Source: Thermotoga neapolitana DSM 4359 (lineage in GTDB: Bacteria; Thermotogota; Thermotogae; Thermotogales; Thermotogaceae). Taken from it: a stretch of DNA of 64,000 bases. Made by a program: the position numbers and the translations under genes. The notes under the pieces were generated by a model. It saw only the letters and a list, made by a program, of their open reading frames with translations, was not told the origin of the DNA and made no database searches. Below are positions 59,937-62,318 of this stretch, one piece after another; positions within the stretch are counted from its first letter, which is position 1; the number at the start of each line of letters is the position of its first letter. The stretch spans positions 62,001 to 126,000 of the forward strand of contig NC_011978.1 of NCBI RefSeq assembly GCF_000018945.1. Reading direction: 5' to 3'.

Positions 59937-60331
59937 ATGAGAGTTGTTGTGAATCTGAAACCTGAGGAAATTCCAAGGTACTGGTACAACGTTCTCGCAG
60001 ATCTTCCCTTCAAACTCGATCCACCTCTTGACCCAGAAACAAAAAAACCGGTCTCACCAGAAAAGCTCTCTGTGATATTTCCGATGAGTCTGATCGAACA
60101 GGAAGTTTCGGAGGAGCGATTCATCGAGATACCAGAACCCGTCCTGAGGGAGTACGCAGTCTACAGACCTACCCCACTCATCAGAGCCACCTTCTTGGAA
60201 GAGTATCTTCAGACACCTGCAAGGATCTACTACAAGTACGAAGGAGTTAGCCCTACCGGCAGCCACAAGCCAAACACGGCCATCGCACAGGCCTATTACA
60301 GAAAACTTGCCAGAAAGCACAACCCATTTAT
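59937..60331 (+). pseudogene. trpB2: trpB2 (tryptophan synthase beta-like), 5' fragment
   Basis: The first part of a TrpB2-type tryptophan synthase beta chain: [42 protein letters not shown] and the PLP lysine motif [22 protein letters not shown] 59937 follows GAAGGAGGGGGATT. After YYRK the sequence no longer resembles TrpB, and a stop comes at 60341. The segment that should follow, with the ETGAGQWG motif, is absent. The remainder of the gene lies after the tnpB element at about 61648. A functional beta chain cannot be made. Confidence 0.92.
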
Positions 60332-60383
60332 GAGATCGTGATGAACGGCAAGAAGTGTTAATATAACACTAGAGGTGCTGAAC

Positions 60384-61619
60384 ATGGCAAAACACATGAA
60401 AACATACAAATTCCCTGCACCACCTGAGTACCACACAAAATGCAAAGAACTATCAAAACTTGCTGGACGAGTATACAGCAAGACAGTTTCTCTTGTCAGA
60501 AAAATCCACAAGAAAAAAGGCTTCTGGCTTTCTATGAACACGGTACAAAAGTACATCCTTCGATGGGCACAAAACATTCCCCTTCACTCTCAGACCAAAC
60601 AAGCCCTGGTGCAAAGATACTTTGAAGCCCTCAAATCCTACTTCAAGGCAAGTAAAACAAACCAAGGCCTCAAACCACCCTTTAGAACACCAAAGTACAC
60701 AAACGTTGTCTGGAAAAACCAGGCAGTAAAACTTCTTGAAGATGGAACCCTAAGACTTGCGATGGGAAATGGAAACGATCCTCTCTACATACCAACAACC
60801 CTCCCAAAGGAAGTGGACATAAGACGTGTCGAACTTGTCTACGACAAAAGACAAGACAAATACTTCTTCCATGTGACAGTTTCATTCGAAAGCCAGACGA
60901 ACATTTCTGGTAGTAAAGTAGTCGGCGTCGACCTTGGCGTTGTGCACCCAATCGTTGCCTCAACAGAGGACAAGGCAGTTATCTACAACGGCGGAGTGCT
61001 CAACTCAAAGCTTCGCTACCGAAACAAAAAGCTCGCTGAGCTCCAAAAGAAGCTGGCAAAGAAGAAACCTGGCTCAAGACGCTACAGGAAACTTGTTCGG
61101 GCAAAAAGAAGGCTTCTTGCAAAGCTCTATAACCAGATCAAAGACATTCTCCACAAGTACACAACACACTTTGTCGGGTGGTGCCTGACAGAAGGAGTAG
61201 GCACCATCGCAATCGGAGACCTTCGAGGTATACGAGACAGGGTCGACTACAACTCTACTGCCAACCAGAAGATCCATCAGTGGCTGTTCAGAAAAATTTC
61301 TGATCTCATCAAGACCAAAGCAGAAGCACTCGGTATTGAAGTGGTCTTCGTTGACGAGTCCTACACATCACAGACGTGTCCTGTCTGTGGTGCAAAACAC
61401 AAAACATCGACGAGGAACTTCAGGTGCTTGGGTTGTGGTTTTGAATGGCACAGGGATGCGGTAGGGGCATTGAACATCAGGAAAAAGTATACAGGCGAGA
61501 GCCTGGTAGTAGGGGCTTTGGCGTCCCCCGTGGGTGTGATGTACAACTCACACCTTCGTTGCCCGGTGGCCATGTGGTCACCGTGGAAGCCCACCTTCGA
61601 GTGGGTAAAAACCTCCTGA
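60384..61619 (+). CDS. tnpB: TnpB RNA-guided nuclease homologue with displaced RuvC-II glutamate
   Basis: A 411-residue OrfB/TnpB protein. RuvC-I Asp is D183 in [11 protein letters not shown]. At the usual RuvC-II Glu the sequence is IAIGDLRG with Gly278. A glutamate occurs at E325 in [12 protein letters not shown], 47 residues later. The zinc finger is CPVC...CLGC (332-351), and RuvC-III Asp is D358 in [10 protein letters not shown]. The N-terminal wedge/REC part is complete and there is no frameshift. ATG 60384 follows GAGGTG; a GTG at 60375 is in frame. The stop lies inside the right-end hairpin. TnpB proteins cut DNA guided by RNA from the element's 3' end and help it persist. Confidence 0.94.
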
Positions 61620-61647
61620 TTTCCTTAGGGGATCGGGAGGACGTCAA
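61533..61647 (+). ncRNA. Predicted reRNA (omegaRNA) scaffold at the tnpB 3' end
   Basis: Three stems follow each other inside the last codons of tnpB: GGTGTGA/TCACACC (61533-61554), GGTGGCC/GGTCACC with a 4-base loop (61565-61582) and CCCAC/GTGGG (61590-61605). The right-end hairpin follows (61612-61640). TnpB guide RNAs arise from just this part, with the guide being the flanking DNA after the element. Here that guide would be the trpB2 sequence starting near 61648. The 5' limit is not defined. Confidence 0.55.
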
Positions 61648-62305
61648 CAGCAAAAGCCTATGAGAAAGCACATGATGAATCTGTTCGGAGGAAAGGTAAC
61701 TCCAAGCCCCAGTGAAGAAACGAACTTCGGAAAGAAGATCCTGAGTGAAGATCCAGACAATCCAGGTAGTCTTGGCATCGCCATCAGTGAGGCACTGGAA
61801 GTGGCCGTGTCTGATCCGAACACGAAGTACTCCCTCGGAAGCGTATTGAACCATGTTCTGCTCCACCAGACGGTTATAGGCCTCGAGATCAAGAAACAGC
61901 TCGAACTCATAGGTGAAAAACCAGACATCTTACTGGGATGTCACGGAGGAGGCTCGAATTTTGGAGGAACGATCCTTCCCTTCATACCGGAAAAACTTTC
62001 TGGAGAGAACATCAGATTCGTTGCCTGCGAACCGACCGCCTGTCCTTCACTGACCAGAGGAAAGTACGACTACGACTTCGGAGACACGGCCGGCCTCACA
62101 CCCCTTCTCAAGATGTACACGCTCGGAAAAGACTTCATTCCACCGAAGATACACGCGGGTGGGCTCAGATACCATGGTTCTGCACCAATAATAGCAAGAC
62201 TCGTGAAAGAGGGAAGCAAAGAAAGCGAAAGAAGAAGGAAAAGAACGTGTGATAGTATTCACTCTGAGCGGCCACGGTCTGCTCGATCTCACAGCGTACG
62301 TGTGA
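61648..62305 (+). pseudogene. trpB2: trpB2, 3' fragment with an internal deletion
   Basis: It resumes at [17 protein letters not shown] and continues through [15 protein letters not shown], the PLP-phosphate loop [11 protein letters not shown] and [23 protein letters not shown]. At about 62214 the next expected 45 or so residues are missing and the frame is shifted. The native end ([21 protein letters not shown] and on to TAYV, stop 62303-62305) is still legible in the other frame. The shifted frame runs on to 62313. This is a second lesion, separate from the insertion. Confidence 0.9.
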
Positions 62306-62318
62306 GGAGGTAAAACAC

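What the first reader, a model, noticed from the sequence alone, without database searches (positions are those of the whole stretch)
60384..61619. TnpB with Gly at the RuvC-II position and a glutamate 47 residues downstream
The canonical iviEDL motif is IAIGDL here (Gly278), while D183 and D358 are kept and E325 sits in [10 protein letters not shown] beside the zinc finger. I recall that a TnpB subgroup with rearranged catalytic sites has its glutamate about 45 residues downstream, which would fit E325. The alternative is a nuclease-dead TnpB repurposed as a repressor, but the other two acidic residues are intact.
Basis: partly seen in the sequence, partly recalled or inferred. Interest (0 to 1): 0.62.

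Follow-up and report, generated by a model that had tools for sequence, protein, structure and literature searches.

The report
Transposon nuclease with relocated catalytic glutamate
A small mobile element in a Thermotogales-type genome carries an RNA-guided DNA cutter (TnpB) whose catalytic glutamate sits at a second, already described position, the one used by eukaryotic Fanzor enzymes, so it is most likely an ordinary active member of that known subgroup and not a dead enzyme.

Summary
The 411-aa TnpB (60384-61619, +) has D183 in VDLG, Gly278 in place of the canonical RuvC-II Glu, E325 exactly six residues before the first zinc-finger CxxC, and D358. This is the "Ealt" arrangement with a D-hydrophobic-G RuvC-I motif that Yoon et al. 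2023 (PMC10711439) described as a separate TnpB clade and as the catalytic layout of Fanzors; the protein passes their published search pattern. Among 43 homologs fetched here, 32 have non-Glu278 plus Glu325, 10 have Glu278 without Glu325, one has neither, and none has both. The swap needs about two changes on a tree built without those columns. AlphaFold places E325 just after RuvC strand beta-5 and before the zinc-finger domain, matching the Fanzor topology; the distance itself could not be measured. A dead repressor is unlikely: the gene sits in an intact 1348-bp element with TTAC target, three copies, a covarying omega RNA and dN/dS of about 0.1-0.17. Near relatives carry a Y1 TnpA directly upstream, so this is an IS200/IS605-type element that has lost tnpA. 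The element interrupts a trpB2-like pseudogene. New member of a known kind; activity is untested.

The parts
60296..60299 (+). TTAC target / inferred transposon-adjacent motif, immediately 5' of the element
   Evidence: TTAC precedes the left end in all three copies in the genome; the L002 copy splits an ABC-ATPase frame exactly after TTAC, and the joined site is contiguous in six same-genus genomes
60300..61647 (+). tnpB-only IS200/IS605-type element, 1348 bp (left end AGAAAAC..., right end ...GTCAA)
   Evidence: Alignment of the three genomic copies; flanks are unrelated outside these points; the right end GTCAA is shared with relatives
60384..61619 (+). TnpB, 411 aa, Ealt RuvC nuclease
   Evidence: Translation and family hits
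60930..60932 (+). codon of D183 (RuvC-I, VDLG)
   Evidence: invariant in A1
61215..61217 (+). codon of G278, in place of the canonical RuvC-II Glu
   Evidence: Glu at this column only in rows that lack Glu325
61356..61358 (+). codon of E325, the alternative catalytic Glu (E + 6 residues + CxxC)
   Evidence: follows predicted strand 319-324
61377..61436 (+). four-Cys zinc finger (TNB domain), C332/C335/C348/C351
   Evidence: Pfam PF07282 match at residues 302-365
61455..61457 (+). codon of D358 (RuvC-III)
   Evidence: invariant
61486..61647 (+). omega RNA scaffold overlapping the 3' end of tnpB and ending at the right end
   Evidence: Fold z = -4.97; 14 pairs with two-sided changes, 96% of cells paired against 34-48% in slid controls; dS 5-9 fold lower in codons 366-411
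61648..61667 (+). guide segment CAGCAAAAGCCTATGAGAAA (inferred), matching the trpB2 right flank
   Evidence: Sequence directly after the right end; homologous to intact trpB2 of relatives, where it follows a TAC or TAT codon
59937..60299 (+). 5' part of the interrupted trpB2-like gene
   Evidence: 73-92% nucleotide identity to intact genes in same-genus genomes
61648..62313 (+). 3' part of the trpB2-like gene; 126 bp missing at the insertion and a further internal deletion near 62220
   Evidence: the second deletion is judged from the sequence

Best explanation
The protein is a catalytically competent RNA-guided TnpB nuclease of the known Ealt (D-hydrophobic-G) subgroup. Shown here: the catalytic Glu position has moved from the end of RuvC strand beta-4 (now G278) to the loop after beta-5 (E325), and the gene lies in an IS200/IS605-type element with TTAC target, intact ends and a structured omega RNA overlapping its 3' end. 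Inferred: D183, E325 and D358 bind two Mg ions; the RNA scaffold carries the 20 nt next to the right end as guide; the complex cuts the empty site TTAC + guide left when the element is excised, which favours retention of the element. The element has lost its own tnpA, and the genome now holds no Y1 transposase, so it probably moved in trans earlier and is now stranded.
For: Motifs and the published Ealt pattern are met. G278 and E325 are invariant over the subgroup, and Ealt and Ecan are mutually exclusive in 42 of 43 homologs, the last having neither; the labels need 2-3 changes on the tree against about 10 for shuffles. Model: strand 319-324 then E325, D183 at the end of strand 178-183, D358 in helix 357-370, core pLDDT about 77-92. 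Structural matches include Cas12f, mimivirus Fanzor2 9b0l and ISDra2 TnpB. SpuFz1 Ealt E541 binds Mg with D383 and D606. Three copies at 100/99/91% identity, clean TTAC insertion, RNA covariation, dN/dS about 0.17 and 0.11. Y1 tnpA lies directly upstream of Ealt tnpB in relatives.
Against: No cleavage assay exists for this protein or, as far as the held literature shows, for any Thermotogales Ealt TnpB. The E325 distance to D183 and D358 was not measured; whole-model TM-scores to solved structures are only about 0.4 and pTM is 0.53, so domain placement is uncertain. The genome has no Y1 or serine transposase, so the element may no longer move.
Confidence: 0.88

Rival explanations
1. A nuclease-dead TnpB (TldR-like) kept as an RNA-guided repressor, with G278 as the inactivating change.
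For: The canonical Glu position is Gly, and dead TnpB repressors are known from the literature (own knowledge).
Against: Gly278 always comes with Glu325 in the clade; D183, D358 and the zinc finger are intact; the gene is still bounded by transposon ends and present in three copies, not a single fixed locus beside a regulated gene; it sits in a trpB2 pseudogene.
Confidence: 0.04
2. A decaying, non-functional remnant: tnpA is gone and the element is a relic drifting without selection.
For: No tnpA in the element and no Y1 or serine transposase in the genome; fragments of other TnpBs are also present.
Against: Three intact open frames, dN/dS about 0.17 between copies and about 0.11 to the nearest relative, and RNA-level constraint in codons 366-411. 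The selection seen may, however, predate loss of tnpA.
Confidence: 0.05
3. E325 is only a conserved structural residue and the nuclease uses D183/D358 plus another acid, or two acids alone.
Against: Glu at this column is invariant in the clade that lacks Glu278 and absent from the rows that have Glu278; the equivalent Glu binds metal in SpuFz1.
Confidence: 0.03

Closest known systems
Ealt TnpBs with DPhiG RuvC-I motif (Yoon et al. 2023, PMC10711439)
   Same: Glu six residues before the zinc finger, DLG at RuvC-I, spacing 142 residues, matches their pattern
   Different: Nothing in catalytic layout; this one is from a Thermotogales-type genome and in an IS200/IS605-type element
Fanzor2 / pro-Fanzor (for example mimivirus Fanzor2, PDB 9b0l)
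   Same: Same Ealt position by the published description; profile match E = 1.1e-21 and fold match
   Different: Fanzors and pro-Fanzors have DPG at RuvC-I and IS607-type context; this has DLG and Y1-TnpA relatives
ISDra2 TnpB (PDB 8bf8, 8exa) and AsCas12f
   Same: TnpB fold, RuvC and TNB domains, right-end guide RNA logic
   Different: AsCas12f carries the canonical Glu (QMEDL) and Pro at the E325 column; ISDra2 TnpB is canonical by own knowledge
TldR nuclease-dead TnpB repressors
   Same: Loss of the canonical RuvC-II Glu (own knowledge of TldR)
   Different: Here an alternative Glu, both Asp and the transposon ends are kept

Membership tests
TnpB family (OMEGA RNA-guided nucleases) | OrfB_IS605 RuvC core plus TNB zinc finger | tested here: met
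   PF01385, PF07282, NF040570 above cutoffs
TnpB family (OMEGA RNA-guided nucleases) | Structured right-end RNA next to a variable guide | tested here: met
   Covarying structure ending at GTCAA; variable sequence follows in each copy
TnpB family (OMEGA RNA-guided nucleases) | RNA-guided DNA cleavage | not testable with these tools
   Needs biochemistry
Ealt (rearranged RuvC-II) TnpB subgroup | No Glu at canonical RuvC-II position; Glu six residues before CxxC | tested here: met
   G278, E325, C332
Ealt (rearranged RuvC-II) TnpB subgroup | Groups with other Ealt proteins on a tree | tested here: met
   22-row all-Ealt branch with support 100/97, columns 278 and 325 left out
Ealt (rearranged RuvC-II) TnpB subgroup | Ealt placed at the RuvC metal site | tested here: inconclusive
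   Topology fits (after beta-5) but the distance was not measurable
Fanzor / pro-Fanzor | DPG at RuvC-I | tested here: not met
   DLG at 183-185
Fanzor / pro-Fanzor | IS607 serine recombinase context | tested here: not met
   No resolvase in the genome; relatives have Y1 TnpA
IS200/IS605 element | Insertion 3' of a short fixed tetranucleotide without target duplication | tested here: met
   TTAC, clean junction against six empty sites for the L002 copy
IS200/IS605 element | Y1 (HUH) TnpA | tested here: not met
   Absent from the element and genome; present upstream of tnpB in relatives, so it is described only as a tnpB-only derivative of this type
TldR repressor | RuvC catalytic triad lost, transposon ends lost | tested here: not met
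   Two Asp plus alternative Glu kept, ends intact

The most novel reading that the evidence does not exclude
The Fanzor-type catalytic layout is common in Y1/IS200-IS605-associated TnpBs of thermophilic bacteria and archaea, so it arose before and outside the IS607 context from which Fanzors came, and this Thermotogales branch would be an uncharacterised hyperthermostable Ealt nuclease. One same-genus copy (L012) even reads DPG, the Fanzor RuvC-I signature.
Probability: 0.4. Interest if true: 0.45.

Novelty: new member of a known kind. Interest (0 to 1): 0.27.

Why it matters
It settles a doubt that annotation alone leaves open: loss of the canonical RuvC-II Glu does not mean a dead enzyme when the Ealt Glu is present. 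A likely heat-stable Ealt TnpB, with target motif, guide and RNA scaffold defined here, would let the role of the relocated glutamate be tested directly outside eukaryotic Fanzors.

Tried and rejected
Dead repressor: rejected on Ealt conservation, intact ends and selection. Fanzor / pro-Fanzor membership: rejected on DLG and Y1 context. A known RNA family: no Rfam hit up to E = 1. Solo copies of the RNA or right end in the genome: none beyond the three elements. Self-target of the guide in the genome: no TTACCAGCAAAAGCC with up to one mismatch. The searches of solved structures printed only the best five alignments, so the residue-level alignment to mimivirus Fanzor2 9b0l was not seen. Two papers looked up by DOI, the PNAS census of TnpBs and the Science Advances Fanzor paper, are not held.

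Full report
Observation. The frame 60384-61619 (+) translates to 411 residues with D183 (VDLG), G278 (IAIGDL), E325 ([13 protein letters not shown]), C332/C335/C348/C351 and D358. Family models place it firmly among RNA-guided TnpBs.

Is the swap real? In an alignment of 15 relatives (30-91% identity, same genus to Micrarchaeota) D183, G278, E325 and D358 are all invariant. In 43 homologs gathered from related genomes, plasmids and a viral contig, 32 have Glu at the 325 column and a non-Glu at 278, ten have Glu at 278 and another residue at 325, one has neither, and none has both. On a maximum-likelihood tree built without these two columns, the labels need 2-3 changes against about 10 for shuffled labels, and the window protein lies in an all-Ealt branch of 22 rows (support 100/97). 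The root is not inferred, so the direction of change is not shown.

What is known. Yoon et al. 2023 (PMC10711439) separate Ecan TnpBs, with Glu about 50 residues upstream of the zinc finger, from Ealt proteins, with Glu six residues upstream of it, and split Ealt into DPhiG and DPG clades; Fanzors and cyanobacterial pro-Fanzors are DPG. Their search pattern, applied here, is matched by the window protein and by 20 other homologs with a standard zinc finger. In SpuFz1 the triad D383/E541/D606 binds two Mg ions at the scissile phosphate (PMC10432273; PMC11423790), and the latter paper places this Glu on the loop between the fifth strand and the TNB domain.

Structure. Two AlphaFold models (mean pLDDT 73.5 and 78.1) give strand 178-183 ending at D183, strand 272-279 holding G278, strand 319-324 ending just before E325, and helix 357-370 starting beside D358. 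That is the Fanzor topology. Foldseek finds Cas12f, mimivirus Fanzor2 and TnpB structures, with modest whole-chain TM-scores of about 0.4. Residues 373-411 are mostly below pLDDT 50 in the second model, in keeping with a tail whose sequence is set by the overlapping RNA.

The element. The genome (1.88 Mb, one contig) holds three full copies at 100, 99 and 91%. Comparing them sets the ends: AGAAAAC... to ...GTCAA, preceded by TTAC. For the window copy this is 60300-61647. The L002 copy splits an ABC-transporter ATPase frame exactly after TTAC; the joined flanks match contiguous DNA in six same-genus genomes. The window copy lies in a trpB2-like gene; six same-genus genomes hold the gene without the element. 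Here 126 bp between two tyrosine codons are missing at the insertion, so the present left flank is probably not the original insertion site; insertion at the second site followed by a deletion between two TTAC-like sites is my inference.

TnpA. The genome has no Y1 transposase and no serine recombinase by Pfam models, but same-genus and same-order genomes have a Y1 tnpA immediately upstream of Ealt tnpB (for example G006 804344-804691 for the Y1 domain and tnpB 803139-804344), and the Allomeiothermus homolog is also next to an IS200/IS605 tnpA. In those Thermotogales relatives the left end also begins AGAA but follows TGAC rather than TTAC.

RNA. The last 162 nt (61486-61647) plus 20 nt of guide fold far better than shuffles (z = -4.97). 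In 15 relatives 38 pairs are formed in 96% of cells, 14 with two-sided changes, against 34-48% of cells when the partners are slid. In the coding overlap (codons 366-411) dS is 0.06 against 0.35 upstream (L001-L003) and 0.21 against 1.96 (L001-L078), while overall dN/dS is about 0.17 and 0.11. Both protein and RNA have thus been under selection.

Mechanism. Shown: the catalytic swap, element ends, target motif and RNA scaffold. Inferred: two-metal catalysis by D183/E325/D358, guide of about 20 nt from 61648 on, and cutting of the empty donor site to retain the element. The dead-repressor reading has little left to support it.

Verdict. A sound observation of a known catalytic variant. Interest is modest; the IS200/IS605 setting and likely heat stability make it a useful experimental system.

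Noticed in passing
window 59937-62313: A trpB2-like gene is broken by the element, lacks 126 bp between two tyrosine codons at the insertion, and has a further internal deletion near 62220; same-genus genomes hold the gene uninterrupted.
   Followed up: partly
L012 (G001 contig 12), RuvC-I: One same-genus Ealt TnpB reads DPG at RuvC-I, the Fanzor signature, while its close sister L035 reads DLG; probably a point change, but it departs from the rule that DPG plus Ealt is confined to the Fanzor lineage.
   Followed up: no
window 61479-61616 (codons 366-411): Synonymous divergence drops 5-9 fold where tnpB overlaps its RNA, a strong sign of dual coding and RNA constraint.
   Followed up: yes
L088, L089, L027: Long-branch TnpB relatives in the same class keep the E325-like Glu but have a degraded zinc finger.
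   Followed up: no
L036-L039 (Micrarchaeota MAGs): Archaeal Ealt TnpBs in which the second zinc-finger Cys pair is broken (RCKLYG), so they miss the published Ealt pattern.
   Followed up: no
L055, L056, L058, L059 left ends: Related autonomous elements start AGAA after TGAC, whereas the window's subfamily starts AGAA after TTAC: a shift in target tetranucleotide.
   Followed up: partly
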